From positions 3,515,199-3,579,198 of the forward strand of contig NZ_BSUO01000001.1 in assembly GCF_030161635.1 (NCBI RefSeq): a stretch of 64,000 nucleotides of DNA, read 5' to 3'. Of the stretch, positions 11,172 to 46,322 are shown piece by piece (position 1 is the first letter of the stretch; each line of letters opens with the position of its first letter). A program made the translations under genes and the position numbers. This DNA is from Mobilicoccus caccae (GTDB lineage: Bacteria > Actinomycetota > Actinomycetes > Actinomycetales > Dermatophilaceae). Below the pieces are notes generated by a model, which worked only from the letters and a program-made list of their open reading frames with translations, made no database searches and was not told where the DNA came from.

Positions 11172-12692
11172 TCAGGCCTGCTTTTCCTCGGCCTTGATCT
11201 CGTGGCCGAGCGTGCGCATCGCGTCGAACTCACCCTCCAGCGCCTCGTTGCGCCGGTAGGTCATCATGCTGACGACGACCGCCACCAGCAGGTTGAGCGC
11301 GAACCCGGGCACGATCTCGTACAGACCGAACAGCGGATCCTCGCGCGTGCCGCCCCACGTCGAGCTCGGACCCCAGAAGCCGACGGTCAGGGCACCGACG
11401 ATCATGCCCGACAGAGCTCCCTGCCACGTGAGCTTGCGCCAGTACAGCGACAGCAACACGATCGGGCCGAGGGCTCCACCGAAACCGGCCCAGGCGAACG
11501 ACACGAGCCGGAGGATCGTGGCGTTCTGCTCCCATGCCAACCACCCGGCGATGAGCGCGACCACCAGCACCGCGAGACGTCCGAGCAGCACGTTGCGGGT
11601 GTCGCTGCTCGCCTTGCCGAACGCCCGGTAGATGTCCTCGACCAGCGCGGATGAGGTCACGATGAGCTGGCTGCTCATCGTGCTCATGATCGCGGCCAGC
11701 ACGGCGGCGAGCATGAACCCGGCGATGATCGGGTGGAACAGGATCTGACCCATGCGGATGTACACCGTCTCGGGGTCGGTGATGGCCAGTTCGGGGTGCT
11801 GCCGGAAGTAGGTGAGGCCGACCAGCGCCGTGCAGATCGCGCCGGTCACCGAGAAGATCATCCAGCCGATCCCGATGCGCCGACCCGCGACCGCCTCGTC
11901 CGCGGACCGCAGCGCCATGAACCTCGTGATGATGTGCGGCTGCCCGAAGTAGCCGAGTCCCCAGGCCAGCGAGGAGACGACGCCGACGACCGTGGCTCCC
12001 TGCACCAGCGACAGGAAGTCGGGGTCGACGGCCCGCACGGTGGAGGACACCTCGCCCAGACCGCCGACGACGAACAGGCCGACCAGCGGCACCGCGACGA
12101 GGGCGGCGACCATCATCACGCCCTGCAGGAAGTCGGTGTAGCTGACGGCGAGGAACCCGCCGAACAGCGTGTAGGCCACCGTCACCGCCGAGATGACGAG
12201 CAGGCCCTCCTCATAGGAGCGGCCGAACGAGCTCTGGTAGAAGACGCCGCTGGCCGTCATGCCGGAGCTGACGTAGAACGTGAAGAACACGAGGATGATC
12301 ACGGCCGACGTCATGCGCAGCGCGCGCGAGCGGTCGTGCAACCGGTTCTCGAAGAAGCTGGGGACCGTGATGGAGTCGTTGGCGACCTCGGAGTAGGCGC
12401 GCAGGCGCGGCGCCACCCACTTCCAGTTGGCCCACGCGCCGACGGTGAGGCCGACGGCGATCCACGACTCCACGAGTCCCGAGGCGTAGATGGCGCCGGG
12501 CAGGCCCATGAGCAGCCAGCCCGACATGTCCGAGGCACCGGCCGACAGGGCGGCGACGCTCGGAGGAAGATCACGGCCGCCGAGCATGTAGTCGCCGAGA
12601 TCGTGGGTGCGGCGGTAGCTGTACCAGCCGACCAGCAGCATGGCCACGAGGTACACGACCATCGTGGCGATCTGCCAGGCAAGTGGGCTCAT
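11172..12692 (-). CDS. putP: sodium/proline symporter PutP
   Basis: Sodium:solute symporter family protein of 506 residues with about 13 hydrophobic helices. PutP features include GGRDLPPSVAALSAGASDMSGWL, in the region that binds sodium and proline in E. coli PutP, and GVFYQSSF and SYTDFLQGVMM further on. It imports proline coupled to sodium. The ATG at 12692 has a strong CCAGGAGGCCC ribosome site. It is transcribed away from the flavohaemoglobin gene across a ~250 bp divergent region. The C-terminal tail is charged. I see no proline-utilisation enzyme genes nearby. Confidence 0.92.
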   Translation of the reverse strand: MSPLAWQIATMVVYLVAMLLVGWYSYRRTHDLGDYMLGGRDLPPSVAALSAGASDMSGWLLMGLPGAIYASGLVESWIAVGLTVGAWANWKWVAPRLRAYSEVANDSITVPSFFENRLHDRSRALRMTSAVIILVFFTFYVSSGMTASGVFYQSSFGRSYEEGLLVISAVTVAYTLFGGFLAVSYTDFLQGVMMVAALVAVPLVGLFVVGGLGEVSSTVRAVDPDFLSLVQGATVVGVVSSLAWGLGYFGQPHIITRFMALRSADEAVAGRRIGIGWMIFSVTGAICTALVGLTYFRQHPELAITDPETVYIRMGQILFHPIIAGFMLAAVLAAIMSTMSSQLIVTSSALVEDIYRAFGKASSDTRNVLLGRLAVLVVALIAGWLAWEQNATILRLVSFAWAGFGGALGPIVLLSLYWRKLTWQGALSGMIVGALTVGFWGPSSTWGGTREDPLFGLYEIVPGFALNLLVAVVVSMMTYRRNEALEGEFDAMRTLGHEIKAEEKQA

Positions 12693-40797: not shown

Positions 40798-41616
40798 TCA
40801 GCGGCGCAGGGCCACCGGGGTGCAGGTCAGGCTCATGGTGCGGGCGGTGACGCTCGCGATGTCGACGACCGTGACGGAGTCGCGCGGCAGGTCGGTCCAG
40901 CCCGTGGTGTCCAGTCCGCTGGAGGCGAAGGCGAGGCTGCCGTCGGCGCCGACGCGGAGCCGCAGGTCGTAGTAGGCCTCGTCGTGCGCCGGCGGCAGGT
41001 CGTCGTCCACGATGCCCCGCTCGATGAAGTGCTCCCGCGGCACGATGGCATCCGTGCTCGCGCGCACCACGACGAGTTCATCGGTGCCGAGGACCATCGC
41101 GTTGAGACTCGCGATCGGAAAGCGTTCGCGCAGGTCGGTGACCACGCAGATCACGGCGTCGCCCAGGTCGAGGCCGTCGGCGAGCCGCTCCCGCACGAGC
41201 GCGAAGTACATCTCGCTGTCGGTCGTGCCACCGCACTCGCGCAGCATCGCCGGCGAGACCAGACTCCGCAGATCGTCGACGGGCAGGATGGACCCGTTGT
41301 GCGCGAATCCGACACCGCTGCCGGTGAACGGGTGGGTGTTGGCCTCACGGATCGACAACCCGCCCGTGGCCAGACGCAGGTGCGCGACCGACGCGCGGGC
41401 GCGGCGTCCGTGCAGGGCGTTGGTGAGGTCGGTGTCGTCGTGCCCCTCACCGGGAGTGCGGCGTCGCTCGACCCGGCCGTCCTCGCGGCGCCACATGATC
41501 CCCCACCCGTCGGCGTGCAGCCGGGCGAGCCGCTGGAACGCGCCCGACTGCTCGATGCCGATGACATCGGACACGGTGGACGGCGCGGGGGCGACGTAGG
41601 CGAGAAGACGACACAT
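40798..41616 (-). CDS. class II glutamine amidotransferase (EgtC/YafJ-like)
   Basis: 272 residues starting MCRLLAYVAP, so Cys2 becomes the N-terminal nucleophile after Met removal, as in all class II amidotransferases. Other features are HADGWGI, HLRLATGG, NTHPFTGSGVGFAHNGSI and TDSEMYFALV, matching the Ntn-hydrolase pocket that releases ammonia from glutamine or cleaves gamma-glutamyl amides. The frame is open upstream of 41616, but that part is not family-like. No ergothioneine genes (egtA/B/D/E) are adjacent, so EgtC identity is not supported by context. Confidence 0.88.
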   Translation of the reverse strand: MCRLLAYVAPAPSTVSDVIGIEQSGAFQRLARLHADGWGIMWRREDGRVERRRTPGEGHDDTDLTNALHGRRARASVAHLRLATGGLSIREANTHPFTGSGVGFAHNGSILPVDDLRSLVSPAMLRECGGTTDSEMYFALVRERLADGLDLGDAVICVVTDLRERFPIASLNAMVLGTDELVVVRASTDAIVPREHFIERGIVDDDLPPAHDEAYYDLRLRVGADGSLAFASSGLDTTGWTDLPRDSVTVVDIASVTARTMSLTCTPVALRR

Positions 41617-41761
41617 GACGAACACACGACTTTCAGGGGTGACGCGAAGACGTCCCCGTCGGTCTGCGCGTGATCGGGCAGGATCTGAATCTCCCATCGG
41701 CAGAAATGCCGCTGAGAAGAAGCTTCTGTTCGGGCGGAGGCGAAACGGCGGCGACACGCCG

Positions 41762-42442
41762 TCACCGGGTCAACCCACCCAGGGACGTCGTCCCACGTTC
41801 TGAGAAGACCGCTCGTTGCGCGAGATAGAGCTCGGCGCACGCCAGCGCGTCCGTGAGCGCCGCGTGCGCCGAATACGGCGGCAGGCCGTGGGCGCGGCGG
41901 GCCGTCCCCAGCCGGAGCGACCCCGCGCGCGGGTCGTCGTACTCGTTCGTCGTCAGCCGCCGCTCGAGTTCGAGGGTGTCGACGACGCGCAACGCCAGCG
42001 GCGCACCGTGGATCCGCCGGCACGCCATCGACAGGAACCCCTCCTCGATCGGCGAGTAGTGGGCCAGGAGTACGCGACCCGTGAGGGCCTCGAGAACGAC
42101 GTCCAGCACCTCGGCCAGGGGCCGACCGCCGGCCACGACGTCGTCGGTGAGGCCGTGCACCACCGCGCTCTGGCCCACCTCACCCTCGGCCCGGACCACG
42201 AGTTCGCGCGCCCCCGACAGGTCGACGACCTCACCGTCGACGGGGACGAACCCGACCGAGAGGATCTGATCGGTCTTGGGGTCCAACCCGGTCGTCTCCA
42301 GGTCGACCGCGAGCAGCGGCACCGTGGAGGTGGGAGTCGAGCGGCGCGGCGGCGCCACGGCCAGGTGCCGCCCCAAGGCCGAGTCCGCTCCGGCCTTTCG
42401 CAGGGCACGCTCCCGCTTGCCGCGCAGGCCCAGACCGATCAC
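41762..42442 (-). CDS. DEDDh 3'-5' exonuclease (DNA polymerase III epsilon-like)
   Basis: 226 residues. The RNase T/epsilon exonuclease fold is shown by ExoI LLAVDLETTGLDP (two acidic metal ligands), ExoII around LLAHYSPIEEGFL, and ExoIII AHAALTDALACAELYL with the His and Asp. The GTG start at 42442 overlaps the TGA of the upstream gene by four bases (GTGA), so translation is coupled. A short basic N-terminus (GLRGKRERALRKAG) precedes the fold. This pairing with a cNMP/CBS/DUF294 gene recurs in bacteria, often near acetate permease genes, but its role is unknown. Confidence 0.9.
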   Translation of the reverse strand: MIGLGLRGKRERALRKAGADSALGRHLAVAPPRRSTPTSTVPLLAVDLETTGLDPKTDQILSVGFVPVDGEVVDLSGARELVVRAEGEVGQSAVVHGLTDDVVAGGRPLAEVLDVVLEALTGRVLLAHYSPIEEGFLSMACRRIHGAPLALRVVDTLELERRLTTNEYDDPRAGSLRLGTARRAHGLPPYSAHAALTDALACAELYLAQRAVFSERGTTSLGGLTR

Positions 42443-44301
42443 GAGATGTATCCGAGCGGCTGACGTTGGGCGAGCGCGGTCTGCGCCTGCCGGATCACGC
42501 CGAACGCGTCCTTGAGCGTGCGTTTCTCGAACGAACTCAGCGAGGCGGGCGAGACGAAGTTGTCCGGCGCGTGCCCCTCGCGCACCCGCCCCGCCTGATG
42601 GCGCAGCCGCACGTAGGAGATGAACTCGAACGCGTCGAGCAGGTCGGCGACGGAACTCTCGGACATGCGCCCGGCGCTGCGTGCCCCCGCGAGGCGGCCG
42701 CGGGTGTCGACCGCGGTCGAGCCCACCGACAGGGCCTGGGCACGCGCGATCTCGGCGACCGGCCCGACACCCCGGTGTTTGAGGTCGAGGGTGCTCTCGT
42801 TCGGGCCGCCCTTCTCCAGCACCAACCCACGGAACAACCCCAGCGGCGGCTGGTGGAACACGGCCTGCTTGATGAGGTGCGCGAGGAACGTCGACGCCTG
42901 CGGCGTGCGCGCCAACACGTGGCGTCGGAGCCGTTCGCACATGTCGGTGTCGCCGGCGAGCGCCCGCATGTCGAAGAAGATCGTCGCGCCGACGACGGCG
43001 TCGGGAGTGGGCCTCTCGATCCACTCGGCGAAGATCGCCCGCCAGGCCGTCTCCGTCTGTCGCCAGCGGGGATTCGTCGCCATGACGTCACCGGGGCAAC
43101 GCGGGTAGCCGCACAGCACGAGCCCGTCGGTGATGAACTCGGCGAACTCGGCGAAGTAGGTGGCGTGCTCCAGCGTGGCGGAGTCGTCGAGGATCAGCGC
43201 CGAGTCCTGATCGCCGCCCAACCCCGACTCATAGCGCGCCTGAGAGCCGAGCGCGACCCAGCAGTACGGCACCGGCGGCGGCCCGAACTTCTCCTCGGCG
43301 AGCAGGATCAGCCGGCGGTGCAGCGCGTCGGCCACCGCCGTGACGACCCGGGAGATGTCGCTCGCCGACGCGTCCTGCGTGACGAGGTGGTCGACGATCG
43401 AGGGCAGGCGCCGCGCCACGGCCGCGAGCCCTTCGGGGCTGCTCTGCCGAGACACGTCCTGCACCACGTACAACGGGCTGGACTGTTCGAGCCGGATCAG
43501 ATCGGTGCTGGTCACCAGGCCGCGGGGACGCCCGTCCTCCACGACGGGCAGGTGATGGATGCCGCGGCCGAGCATCTCCAGCAGCGCCTCGAGCGCGAGC
43601 GCGTCGGACTCCAGGGTGATCGGATCGGTCGTCATGACCTCCGCGATCGGGACCTCGACCGACAGCCCCTCCGCGACGACGCGATTGCGCAGGTCACGGT
43701 CGGTGAGGATGCCGCAGAGGCGATCGGTGGAATCGAGGACGAGCACGGAGGACACCCGCGCCTCGCGCATGGTGCGGGCGGCCTCCCGCACGGTCGCGTC
43801 GGGTCGCGCGATGACCGGCGCGCGCCCCAGCATGTCGGCGATCCTCGTGCGCAGCACCGCGCCGCCGTGATCGGAGATCTGGACGCTCTCCACGGCCTGC
43901 CGCAACCGATGAGCTTGTTGCAGCATGAAATAGGAGGAGACGCCGGGATAGGTGAGCAGATCGCGGAAGACCTCCCCGGGGACGACGAGGACGAGCGTGT
44001 CCTCCACCGCCGTGACGACGAAGCCGTACGGGGGCGGCTGCAGCAACCCGTTGACGCCGACGCTGCCGCCGACGTCCACCCGTTCCACCAGACCTCCGGC
44101 CGGGTCGTGCACGTCGAGGGCTCCGGAGCGGACGATGAGGAAGCTCGTGACCACCTCGTCGGGTCGCAGGATCGTGCTACCGCGCCGGTGATACCGCAGC
44201 GAACAGCGGGCGGGCACCGCCGCGAGGACGTCGTCGGGCAGATCCGAGAACGGGGCGTGGGCGGCGAGGAAGTCTCTGACCTCGGCGAGTTCGGGCTCCA
44301 T
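42439..44301 (-). CDS. cNMP-binding, CBS-pair, DUF294 nucleotidyltransferase-like protein
   Basis: 620 residues. Order: cyclic-nucleotide-binding domain (about 10-130, with RRGSTILRPDEVVTSFLIVRSGAL), two CBS domains (about 150-275, with ILTDRDLRNRVV and GLVTSTDLIRL), DUF294 nucleotidyltransferase-like domain (about 310-430, with WVALGSQARYESGLGGDQDSALI, a GS...DxD-type active site), and the helical DUF294 C-terminal domain. It probably senses nucleotides through the first two modules and transfers a nucleotidyl group, perhaps to a protein. The start is ATG 44301 (MEPELAEVRDFL) or ATG 44316. Coupled to the downstream exonuclease through GTGA. Confidence 0.88.
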   Translation of the reverse strand: MEPELAEVRDFLAAHAPFSDLPDDVLAAVPARCSLRYHRRGSTILRPDEVVTSFLIVRSGALDVHDPAGGLVERVDVGGSVGVNGLLQPPPYGFVVTAVEDTLVLVVPGEVFRDLLTYPGVSSYFMLQQAHRLRQAVESVQISDHGGAVLRTRIADMLGRAPVIARPDATVREAARTMREARVSSVLVLDSTDRLCGILTDRDLRNRVVAEGLSVEVPIAEVMTTDPITLESDALALEALLEMLGRGIHHLPVVEDGRPRGLVTSTDLIRLEQSSPLYVVQDVSRQSSPEGLAAVARRLPSIVDHLVTQDASASDISRVVTAVADALHRRLILLAEEKFGPPPVPYCWVALGSQARYESGLGGDQDSALILDDSATLEHATYFAEFAEFITDGLVLCGYPRCPGDVMATNPRWRQTETAWRAIFAEWIERPTPDAVVGATIFFDMRALAGDTDMCERLRRHVLARTPQASTFLAHLIKQAVFHQPPLGLFRGLVLEKGGPNESTLDLKHRGVGPVAEIARAQALSVGSTAVDTRGRLAGARSAGRMSESSVADLLDAFEFISYVRLRHQAGRVREGHAPDNFVSPASLSSFEKRTLKDAFGVIRQAQTALAQRQPLGYIS

Positions 44302-44394: not shown

Positions 44395-44904
44395 TCAGCG
44401 TTCGGCGAGGCGGCGGAAGATCTCGTCGACGATCTGCGCCGGCGGCAGGTCGATGGAGAACACGTACCCGGACTCGTCGTCCCCGAGAGGTTCGAGGGTG
44501 TCGAGCTGGGAGTCCAGGAGGCTCGCGGGCATGAAGTGTCCGCTGCGCCCTCCGAGGCGCTGCTCCAGGGTCGAGTGTTCGCCGTGCAGATGCACGAACA
44601 CCACGTCGCGGCCGCCCTTGCGTAGCTGGTCGCGGTAGGCGCGCTTGAGCGCCGAACACGTGACGACACTCGACATGCCGGCCCGCTCACGCGCCTGGAT
44701 CCACTCGGTGAGGGCCTCCAGCCAGGGCCCACGGTCCTCGTCGGTGAGCGGAGTCCCGTTCTCCATCTTCTCGATGTTGGCCGCGGGGTGGAAGTCGTCG
44801 GCCTCGGCGAAGACCCAACCCGTGCGATCGCGCAGGGCCTCGGCGACCGTCGACTTGCCCGAGCCCGAGACGCCCATGACGACGAGGTGACGTGGAGAGT
44901 TCAT
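44395..44904 (-). CDS. gntK: gluconokinase
   Basis: 169 residues, a GntK/IdnK-type shikimate-kinase-fold enzyme that phosphorylates gluconate to 6-phosphogluconate for the pentose phosphate pathway. Walker A is GVSGSGKST, followed by ADDFHPAANIEKMENGTPLTDEDR, and CSALKRAYRDQLR forms the substrate and lid region; SGHFMPASLLDSQLDTLEPL is a family hallmark. ATG 44904 is preferred over ATG 44913 because GAAG lies 9 nt upstream. It starts just after the gntP stop, so the two form an operon. Confidence 0.93.
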   Translation of the reverse strand: MNSPRHLVVMGVSGSGKSTVAEALRDRTGWVFAEADDFHPAANIEKMENGTPLTDEDRGPWLEALTEWIQARERAGMSSVVTCSALKRAYRDQLRKGGRDVVFVHLHGEHSTLEQRLGGRSGHFMPASLLDSQLDTLEPLGDDESGYVFSIDLPPAQIVDEIFRRLAER

Positions 44905-44915
44905 GCCGTTCATCT

Positions 44916-46322
44916 TCACACCAACAGGCTGATGGCGAAGGCCAGAGCGAAGCCGATCACGCCGAGGAGGGTCTCCAGGACCGTCCACGTCTTCAGCGTG
45001 GTCTTGACGTCCATGTCGAGGAACCGGCCGACGAGCCAGAATCCGGAGTCGTTGACGTGCGAGAGCACGGTCGCACCACAGGCGATGGCGACGACGATGC
45101 ACGCGAGCTCGAGCTGGGACATGCCCGGCGTGGCCGCGACGGTGGGCGCGATGAGGCCGGCCGTCGTCGTGAGGGCGACCGTGGCCGAGCCCTGCGCGAC
45201 ACGCAGCGCCGTGGAGATGATGAACGCCGCGACGATGATCGGCAGACCGATGCCCGCGAGGCTGCCCGCGAGCGCCTCACCGATGCCGCTGGCGCGCAGC
45301 ACGCCACCGAACATGCCACCGGCGCCGGTGATGAGGATGATCGCGCAGACGGGACCGAGGGCGTCGTTGCACAGCTTCTCGATCTCGGCGCGACCGAGCC
45401 GCGGGCCGGCGAGGGTGAACACGGCCACGAGCAGGGTGATGAGCAGCGCGACGGGCGTCTGACCGAGCAGGCGCAGGGCCTGGACCCAGGTCGCGTCACC
45501 GTCCACGACGCCGCTCTTGGCGATCGTGTTGAGGCCGGTGTTGAGGAAGATCAGCACGAGCGGCAGGAGCAGGAGCACGAGGACGTGACCGAAGGACGGC
45601 CGCGACTGTTCGGGCACGTCCTCGACCTCACCGAGGATCGAGGGGACCGGGAGGTCGAACCGCTTGCCGGCCCACACACCGTAGAGGTAGGCGCCGAGGA
45701 ACCAGGTGGGTAGACCGATGAGCAGACCCACGACCACGATGAGACCGATGTCGGCGCCGAGGAGTTCACCCGCGGCGACCGGGCCGGGGTGCGGCGGGAC
45801 GAAGGCGTGCATGACCGCGAACGCACCCGCGGCGGGCAACGCGTAGGTGAGGACCGAGCCGCCGAAGCGGCGCGCGACGCTGAAGATGATCGGCAGCATG
45901 ACGACCAGGCCGGCGTCGAAGAAGATCGGGAAGCCGAACAGCAGCGAGGCGACACCGAGGGCGAACGGCGCCCGCTTCTCACCGAACCGGGAGATGAGGG
46001 TGTCGGCGAGGGTCTGTGCGCCGCCGGTCACCTCGAGCAGGCGGCCGATCATGGCGCCGAGTCCGACGAGCAACGCGACGCTGGCCAGCGTGCTGCCGAA
46101 CCCGTCGAGCAGCGTCGGCATGAGGTCGCCGAGGGGGATGCGCGTGGCGAGCGCCGTCAGCAGGCTGACGAGGACCAGCGCGACGAAGGCGTGGATCTTC
46201 ACCTTCATGATGAGGAAGAGCAGCACCAGCACCGCGACGACCGCGATGCCGAGCAGCACGCCCGTGGAGTAGGCCGGTTGGACGGGTTCCGCCGCAGTGA
46301 GGAGCCCGGGGAGTCGAGACAC
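44916..46322 (-). CDS. gntP: GntP family gluconate permease
   Basis: 468 residues with about 12-14 hydrophobic helices, importing gluconate with protons. Family motifs include FGFPIFFDAGLVVMLPIIFSVA and HAFVPPHPGPVAAGELLGADIG in the N-terminal half, and GAGGMFGGVLRASGIGEAL and HVNDSGFWLVGRF in the C-terminal half. The GTG start at 46322 has TTAGGAGG 5-6 nt upstream. Divergent from a GntR-type regulator across an AT-rich 135-bp region, and followed by gntK. Confidence 0.94.
   Translation of the reverse strand: MSRLPGLLTAAEPVQPAYSTGVLLGIAVVAVLVLLFLIMKVKIHAFVALVLVSLLTALATRIPLGDLMPTLLDGFGSTLASVALLVGLGAMIGRLLEVTGGAQTLADTLISRFGEKRAPFALGVASLLFGFPIFFDAGLVVMLPIIFSVARRFGGSVLTYALPAAGAFAVMHAFVPPHPGPVAAGELLGADIGLIVVVGLLIGLPTWFLGAYLYGVWAGKRFDLPVPSILGEVEDVPEQSRPSFGHVLVLLLLPLVLIFLNTGLNTIAKSGVVDGDATWVQALRLLGQTPVALLITLLVAVFTLAGPRLGRAEIEKLCNDALGPVCAIILITGAGGMFGGVLRASGIGEALAGSLAGIGLPIIVAAFIISTALRVAQGSATVALTTTAGLIAPTVAATPGMSQLELACIVVAIACGATVLSHVNDSGFWLVGRFLDMDVKTTLKTWTVLETLLGVIGFALAFAISLLV

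What the first reader, a model, noticed from the sequence alone, without database searches (positions are those of the whole stretch)
41762..44301. Exonuclease translationally coupled to a cNMP/CBS/DUF294 nucleotidyltransferase-like protein
GTGA overlap couples a DEDDh exonuclease to a protein with a nucleotide sensor, a CBS energy sensor and a GS...DQD nucleotidyltransferase site. The pair resembles a regulated signalling or nucleic-acid processing unit; it is often found near acetate permeases, which are absent here.
Basis: partly seen in the sequence, partly recalled or inferred. Interest (0 to 1): 0.5.

Follow-up and report, generated by a model that had tools for sequence, protein, structure and literature searches.

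The report
Nucleotide-tagging enzyme with exonuclease partner
Two overlapping genes, one for an enzyme that probably attaches a nucleotide to some other protein and one for an exonuclease-like enzyme that may take the tag off again, form a pair that also occurs in many other bacteria, often beside genes for taking up acetate-like foods.

Summary
The pair is real. A 620-aa cNMP-fold/CBS/DUF294/DUF294_C protein (42439-44301, minus) ends in a GTGA overlap with a 226-aa DnaQ-fold exonuclease (41762-42442). In a 99-genome family sample, 33 genomes carry both orthologues, 66 neither and none only one; the genes are adjacent in all 33. Among 141 DUF294 copies in fetched loci from two phyla, 95 have the exonuclease directly downstream. 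Catalytic residues are kept in both. The pair is already in print from Pseudomonas (PP_0354/PP_0353, acetate/pyruvate regulon).

New here: (1) the transferase carries GSX10DXD, and its low-confidence model's best PDB matches are protein AMPylases (GlnE, DrrA); (2) a sister DUF294 clade has an unrelated ApaH/PPP-like phosphoesterase in the exonuclease's place; (3) the cNMP domain lacks the cAMP-binding signature, while the CBS adenylate motif is kept; (4) exonuclease motif II is Glu here. Best reading: a CBS-regulated protein AMPylase with its own eraser. It fits P. putida genetics but is untested, and a regulated-exonuclease reading fits them too. Evidence against: RNase T, another exonuclease, did not deAMPylate in print, and 24 of 141 copies have no detected partner. 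A double mutant decides.

The parts
42439..44301 (-). DUF294 nucleotidyltransferase protein, 620 aa (P0001)
   Evidence: translation; Pfam domains
43954..44196 (-). cNMP-fold domain, residues 36-116; lacks canonical cAMP-pocket Glu and Arg
   Evidence: Pfam PF00027 42.9 bits; columns
43489..43830 (-). CBS pair, about residues 158-271, with G-x-x-T-x-x-D motifs at 197-203 and 261-267
   Evidence: Pfam PF00571, 2 stretches; conservation
43000..43410 (-). DUF294 nucleotidyltransferase domain, residues 298-434
   Evidence: PF03445 158.5 bits
43204..43248 (-). GSX10DXD catalytic motif, residues 352-366
   Evidence: conserved
42463..42891 (-). DUF294_C helical domain, residues 471-613
   Evidence: PF10335 142 bits
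42439..42442 (-). GTGA stop/start overlap
41762..42442 (-). DnaQ-fold 3'-5' exonuclease-like protein, 226 aa (P0002)
   Evidence: translation; PF00929 49.9 bits; PRK09146 168.8 bits, below its cut-off of 266
42296..42304 (-). exonuclease motif I, Asp47 and Glu49
42032..42061 (-). exonuclease motif II HYSPIEEGFL, Glu133 in place of Asp
41849..41866 (-). exonuclease motif III, His193 and Asp198
44395..45102 (-). ORF of gluconate kinase GntK (true start probably near 44913)
   Evidence: TIGR01313 185.1 bits
44916..46322 (-). gluconate permease GntP
   Evidence: TIGR00791 368.3 bits

Best explanation
A reversible protein-nucleotidylation switch. The DUF294 protein is a GlnE/DrrA-type adenylyltransferase that puts AMP (or another NMP, perhaps several in a chain) on a hydroxyl residue of a target in carbon uptake or central metabolism, gated by adenine nucleotides at its CBS pair. 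The overlapping exonuclease is its dedicated eraser: its two-metal site hydrolyses the 5'-NMP phosphodiester, or trims an oligo-AMP chain from its 3' end. Shown by computation: the pairing, the intact active sites, the transferase motif and its fold resemblance. Inferred: that the substrate is a protein, that the nucleotide is AMP, that the exonuclease removes it, and which target is modified.
For: Obligate pairing: 33 of 99 family genomes (19 of 53 genera) have both, 66 neither. GSX10DXD in 136 of 141 copies (the window is counted twice in its 142 rows), 0.9% in shuffles; Asp364 140/141, Asp366 138 (+3 Glu), Asp444 136 (+5 Glu), Arg520 and Arg536 141/141. PDB comparison of the 343-residue model: GlnE 1v4a Z 13.9 (284 aligned, 4.6 A), DrrA 6yx5 13.2, GlnE 3k7d 12.4, DrrA 3nku 12.0; next row, a designed protein, 7.4; Foldseek's three matches under E 0.001 are GlnE and DrrA chains. 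Partner swap: in a 13-tip DUF294 clade (support 1.0; its sister L159 has the exonuclease, 0.945) a PPP/ApaH-like phosphoesterase directly follows DUF294 in 8 copies and lies near it in a ninth, so two unrelated phosphoesterase folds fill one position. P. putida: deleting PP_0353 (exonuclease) slows growth on pyruvate, deleting PP_0354 does not (PMC9927547). Chemistry: DEDD exonucleases hydrolyse pNP-TMP, an aryl 5'-NMP ester like Tyr-AMP (PMC6390093, PMC7694242). MntA, with the same motif, puts three 3'-5'-linked AMPs on a tyrosine, eraser unknown (PMC7641770). SidD, eraser of DrrA/SidM, is encoded beside it (PMC12409994); RNase Z is a deAMPylase (PMC12663964).
Against: RNase T, an exoribonuclease (DEDD fold recalled), did not deAMPylate SodA-AMP or SucA-AMP in PMC12663964, so the activity is not general to such nucleases. 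24 of 141 DUF294 copies have no exonuclease or PPP partner found downstream. GlnE reverses itself by phosphorolysis with its own second domain, so a separate eraser is not required. The swap clade is confined to one family, so it is probably one event. The AF2 model is weak (pLDDT 58.0, pTM 0.55, three sequences) and the tool warns that helical models can reach Z about 14. P. putida genetics fit the rival 'exonuclease is the working enzyme' as well.
Confidence: 0.4

Rival explanations
1. Regulated exonuclease: the exonuclease trims RNA (or DNA) and the DUF294 protein binds or nucleotidylates it to switch it on or off with adenylate charge.
For: Exonuclease active site intact in 106 of 108 partners (the window is counted twice in its 109 rows); profile matches are nucleic-acid exonucleases such as 2p1j, E 9.1e-43; the authors of PMC9927547 suggest degradation of metabolic mRNAs; overlapping genes suit a complex.
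Against: Does not explain why a PPP/ApaH-like enzyme holds the same position in a sister clade; the P. putida mutant showed no effect with added DNA.
Confidence: 0.3
2. RNA tailing and trimming: DUF294 adds nucleotides to an RNA 3' end and the exonuclease removes them.
For: A polymerase-beta-fold transferase with a 3'-5' exonuclease is a natural pair (inference).
Against: No RNA-binding domain found in P0001; model's best matches are protein AMPylases, not RNA tailing enzymes; the PPP swap does not fit.
Confidence: 0.08
3. Signal-nucleotide cycle: DUF294 makes a small dinucleotide or ApnA-like signal read by CBS domains, and the exonuclease or ApaH-like enzyme destroys it.
For: The swap partner's weak NCBIfam matches include symmetrical bis(5'-nucleosyl)-tetraphosphatase; CBS adenosine motif conserved.
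Against: Transferase most resembles protein AMPylases; a DnaQ-fold nuclease is not expected to cut ApnA (recalled).
Confidence: 0.1
4. Co-regulated neighbours with no direct biochemical link, kept together by a carbon-source regulon such as CrbS/R.
For: CrbS/R regulates Pflu5625, actP and acs (PMC5715377); SSF within 4 kb in 35 of 64 proteobacterial copies.
Against: In the window's family the pair stays together without acetate genes: all 32 orthologue loci have the exonuclease and none has SSF within 4 kb.
Confidence: 0.1

Closest known systems
PP_0354/PP_0353 of Pseudomonas putida (Pflu5625 in P. fluorescens), CrbS/R (MxtR/ErdR) targets
   Same: Same gene pair by description and order: CBS/cNMP/nucleotidyltransferase gene, then RNase_T-fold exonuclease (PMC9927547; PMC5715377).
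   Different: Here the neighbours are GntP-GntK instead of yjcH-actP or glcB; no CrbS/R link was tested. No Pseudomonas sequence known as such was compared directly.
GlnE (glutamine synthetase adenylyltransferase)
   Same: Polymerase-beta-type transferase with helical C-terminal domain; best fold match; DUF294_C is listed with GlnD/GlnE in one HEPN-like group (PMC3710099).
   Different: One transferase domain, not two; cNMP-fold and CBS domains in front; separate hydrolase gene.
DrrA(SidM)-SidD AMPylase/deAMPylase pair of Legionella (named only, nothing fetched)
   Same: AMPylase of the same fold group with a hydrolytic eraser encoded beside it (PMC12409994).
   Different: A secreted effector pair; the eraser has a PPM fold. 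Here it would have a DnaQ fold, or PPP in the sister clade.
MntA-HepT (HEPN/MNT)
   Same: GSX10DXD transferase that adds three AMPs to a tyrosine (PMC7641770).
   Different: MntA is under 150 aa and its partner is an RNase toxin; here the partner is a DnaQ-fold nuclease and sensor domains are fused to the transferase.

Membership tests
DUF294 family (PF03445 + PF10335) with cNMP and CBS domains | all four Pfam domains over their cut-offs | tested here: met
   158.5, 142, 95.4 and 42.9 bits
GlnE/DrrA/MntA-type protein adenylyltransferase | GSX10DXD motif | tested here: met
   residues 352-366; 136 of 141 copies
GlnE/DrrA/MntA-type protein adenylyltransferase | GlnE/DrrA fold over transferase and helical domain | tested here: inconclusive
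   Z 13.9-12.0 against 7.4 for the next row, but the model is weak (pLDDT 58.0, pTM 0.55) and much of the helical domain is under 50
GlnE/DrrA/MntA-type protein adenylyltransferase | transfers an NMP to a protein | not testable with these tools
   needs enzyme assay
DEDDh exonuclease | motif I D-x-E and motif III H-x4-D | tested here: met
   D47, E49, H193, D198
DEDDh exonuclease | Asp in motif II | tested here: not met
   Glu133; Glu in 72 and Asp in 35 of 108 partners, one gap. Filed as DnaQ-fold, not strict DEDDh
NCBIfam PRK09146 3'-5' exonuclease | score over 266 bits | tested here: not met
   168.8 bits
cAMP-binding cNMP domain | Glu after F-G and Arg in the phosphate-binding cassette (recalled) | tested here: not met
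   absent in the window; both together in 1 of 126 rows
AMPylase/deAMPylase gene pair (as DrrA/SidD) | eraser encoded beside the writer | tested here: inconclusive
   adjacency met; that the neighbour is an eraser is untested
CrbS/R regulon pair | CrbR-type promoter motif and actP/acs linkage | not tested
   motif not searched; no SSF within the window stretch read
Anti-phage defence system | match to a defence family model | tested here: inconclusive
   P0001 none; P0002 only nuclease-domain models: CRISPR-associated DEDDh, PDC-S48, RTasSbcB

The most novel reading that the evidence does not exclude
DUF294 proteins are a large, uncharacterised class of bacterial metabolic AMPylases, and DnaQ-fold exonucleases (replaced in one clade by an ApaH/PPP-like enzyme) are their dedicated deAMPylases: a portable writer-eraser module that tunes transporters or first enzymes of carbon uptake (acetate/pyruvate SSF, gluconate GntP-GntK, amino-acid permease) to adenylate charge.
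Probability: 0.3. Interest if true: 0.82.

Novelty: new variant of a known kind. Interest (0 to 1): 0.55.

Why it matters
PMC7641770 leaves open which phosphodiesterases reverse AMPylation by MntA ('unknown PDEs'), and PMC12663964 calls the erasers of SelO marks elusive before RNase Z. A gene pair in 33 of 99 sampled family genomes, with DUF294 homologues in 75 of 199 sampled proteobacterial genomes, would be a natural writer-eraser set. It would give PP_0353, whose loss slows growth on pyruvate, a mechanism, and show an exonuclease fold used on protein.

Tried and rejected
Cyclic-nucleotide sensing: rejected as likely, since pocket residues are missing. Motif II Glu as a hallmark of all partners: rejected, 35 of 108 have Asp. 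Fusion of DUF294 and exonuclease in one ORF: none among the fetched loci. A conserved third gene in the window's family: none found; only DUF294 and the exonuclease recur broadly, a LysR gene follows in 7 loci. Structured RNA: no Rfam match in the window. Promoter/terminator scan: no site between the pair's genes; one terminator-like site inside DUF294, 1.0 expected by chance. Solved-structure sequence search for the transferase region: best real hit, a small nucleotidyltransferase, E 0.2, so no sequence-level relative. GlnD/UR domain: only 1 of 47 transferase regions matches it, weakly. Papers with 'DUF294': of the 15 listed, I looked at passages of four; three are DUF2946 matches and one is the HEPN survey. 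Searches found no paper and 71 only the HEPN survey; led to the P. putida paper; no paper listed was seen to propose a DnaQ-fold deAMPylase, but only three of its 20 listed papers were looked into there.

The seed HMMs for SSF, AAP, SBP3, PPP and GntP came from these same loci, so those counts find relatives of what was first seen there. Fragments under about 330 aa, such as L124, were dropped from the counts. L063 and L094 are the same M. pelagius contig, judged by equal length; only L094 was counted. Searches count the window twice (142 and 109 rows); I subtract one.

Full report
Observation. The DUF294 gene comes first, the exonuclease second, with a GTGA overlap. Domains are as claimed. 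The nearest NCBIfam model for the exonuclease is PRK09146, 168.8 bits against a cut-off of 266.

Where it is. The closest named relative is Mobilicoccus pelagius (71% identity in the DUF294 protein), family Dermatophilaceae. The genome record is 4.53 Mb in 5 contigs.

Co-conservation. In 99 genomes of the family, 33 have a strong DUF294 orthologue and the same 33 have a strong exonuclease orthologue (lowest about 150 bits against 68.5 for the next best); 66 have neither (sets compared). They span 19 of 53 genera; the hypergeometric value of 5e-27 ignores kinship. In all 33 the exonuclease is the next gene downstream: 15 overlaps of 4 nt, 3 of 1 nt, 14 gaps of 2-43 nt, one unresolved start.

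Wider survey. In 296 genomes of the phylum 27 have a DUF294 match at E 1e-60; in 199 proteobacterial genomes 75 have one at 1e-25. I read neighbourhoods with HMMs on six-frame translations. Of 141 DUF294 copies in 138 loci, 95 have the exonuclease directly downstream (under 250 nt), 13 within 3 kb, 1 farther, 8 a PPP-type phosphoesterase instead, 24 neither. By group: family orthologues 32 of 32 adjacent; proteobacteria 50 of 64 adjacent and 10 near; other phylum members 13 of 28 adjacent and 3 near; other DUF294 copies of the family 0 of 17 with the exonuclease. Pairwise distances of the two proteins correlate (r 0.85, 109 rows), which shared ancestry alone can give. In the transferase tree the window's clade (32 tips, support 1.0) groups with proteobacterial pairs (0.943), which suggests an old transfer of the unit; in the exonuclease tree it also groups with proteobacterial partners, but the inner nodes are weak (0.157 to 0.875).

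Active sites. Transferase: Gly352 141/141, Ser353 139/141, Asp364 140/141, Asp366 138 (+3 Glu), Asp444 136 (+5 Glu), Lys508 140/141, Arg520 and Arg536 141/141. Exonuclease: the five positions are intact in 106 of 108 partners, allowing Glu or Asp in motif II; the two exceptions are L254_4994 and the contig-cut L146. The window has Glu there, as do 72 of 108; 35 have Asp.

Sensors. CBS motifs T/S-x-x-D, typical of adenosine ligands (recalled), are kept: Asp203 125/141, Asp267 120/141. The cNMP domain lacks the usual Glu and Arg in the window; both together occur in 1 of 126 rows with letters there. cAMP control is therefore unlikely.

What the transferase resembles. An AF2 model of residues 278-620 from three sequences is weak (pLDDT 58.0, pTM 0.55). 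Foldseek's three matches under E 0.001 are GlnE (3k7d, two chains) and DrrA (6yx5). VIA-align ranks GlnE 1v4a (Z 13.9, 4.6 A, 284 aligned), DrrA 6yx5 (13.2, 5.7 A, 280), GlnE 3k7d (12.4, 5.0 A, 265) and DrrA 3nku (12.0, 4.0 A, 170); the fifth row, unrelated, has 7.4. The tool warns about helical models; that four chains of known AMP-transferring proteins lead by a wide margin, with the GSX10DXD motif, makes the reading reasonable, not proven. A sequence profile found no close solved relative.

The partner swap. In a clade of 13 copies (support 1.0) that mostly sits beside an amino-acid permease and a family-3 solute-binding protein (11 and 9 of the 17 other family copies), the gene right after DUF294 in 8 copies encodes a calcineurin-like phosphoesterase with PPP-type motifs GDVGGH, GDLVHRG and GNHE or close variants; weak NCBIfam matches are Pnkp, ApaH and PrpE. 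A ninth copy, L129, has it nearby in another arrangement. L159, with the exonuclease, is sister to the clade (0.945). Two unrelated phosphoesterase folds in one operon slot point to a shared job: breaking a phosphoester made by the transferase. That is an inference.

Neighbours. In actinobacterial loci L133, L134 and L138 the order is DUF294, exonuclease, DUF485, SSF symporter, acetyl-CoA synthetase. SSF lies within 4 kb in 35 of 64 proteobacterial and 8 of 28 phylum copies. In the window the upstream genes are GntP and GntK; GntP is within 4 kb in 2 of 32 family loci (the window and L095) and 5.1 kb away in L094. The window's genome has a MctC/ActP-type symporter far away and PutP inside the window.

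Literature. PMC9927547 (abstract and sections 7 and 8 read): PP_0354 and PP_0353 form an operon under MxtR/ErdR; neither deletion affects growth on acetate; the PP_0353 deletion is delayed on pyruvate and complemented, the PP_0354 deletion is not impaired; the authors suggest mRNA decay. PMC5715377 (passages): Pflu5625 is in the CrbS/R regulon, with no phenotype. PMC8402216 (passages): PP_0354 is induced on acetate. PMC5436829: no hit for the terms searched. PMC3710099 (passages): DUF294_C is grouped with GlnD/GlnE HEPN-like domains, no RNase motif. PMC7641770 and PMC11586414 (passages): poly-AMPylation by MNT proteins, on a tyrosine in the first, with reversal left to unknown or putative phosphodiesterases. 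PMC6390093 and PMC7694242 (passages): exonucleases of this class hydrolyse pNP-TMP. PMC12663964 (passages): RNase Z is a deAMPylase; [quoted passage not shown] PMC12409994 and PMC3656104 (passages): SidD, encoded beside SidM, is a PPM-fold deAMPylase.

Mechanism and verdict. The published genetics fit an eraser (no eraser: target stuck modified; no writer: target unmodified, no defect). They equally fit an exonuclease that is itself the working enzyme and is only restrained by DUF294. The double mutant separates the two. I favour the writer-eraser switch at 0.4 and the regulated exonuclease at 0.3. As a gene pair this is known; as a proposed AMPylation switch with a DnaQ-fold or PPP-fold eraser it is a new variant of a known kind.

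Noticed in passing
L129, L132, L161-L168: A DUF294 clade mostly beside an amino-acid permease and solute-binding protein, with a PPP/ApaH-like phosphoesterase where the exonuclease would be; 8 adjacent, one (L129) rearranged, L166 without it.
   Followed up: partly
L125-L127: Second DUF294 copies without an exonuclease in three genomes that also have the pair; the match starts at the CBS domains, and L125 shows no cNMP domain by Pfam over the stretch scanned.
   Followed up: no
L064:7801-9186 and L153:2278-4407: Longer exonuclease ORFs near DUF294 (461 and 709 aa); the second has HAMP and a weak PAS match, like a membrane sensor fused to an exonuclease.
   Followed up: no
window 41762-44301: The window's pair groups with proteobacterial pairs rather than with other actinobacterial families in the transferase tree, suggesting old horizontal transfer.
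   Followed up: partly
window 11172-12692: Sodium/proline symporter PutP (TIGR02121, 673 bits); a MctC/ActP-type symporter is elsewhere in the genome at C1:331581-332813.
   Followed up: partly
window 40798-41757: Class II glutamine amidotransferase (EgtC-like, below cut-off) directly downstream of the pair; the same cluster follows in L093 and L095 of the genus.
   Followed up: no
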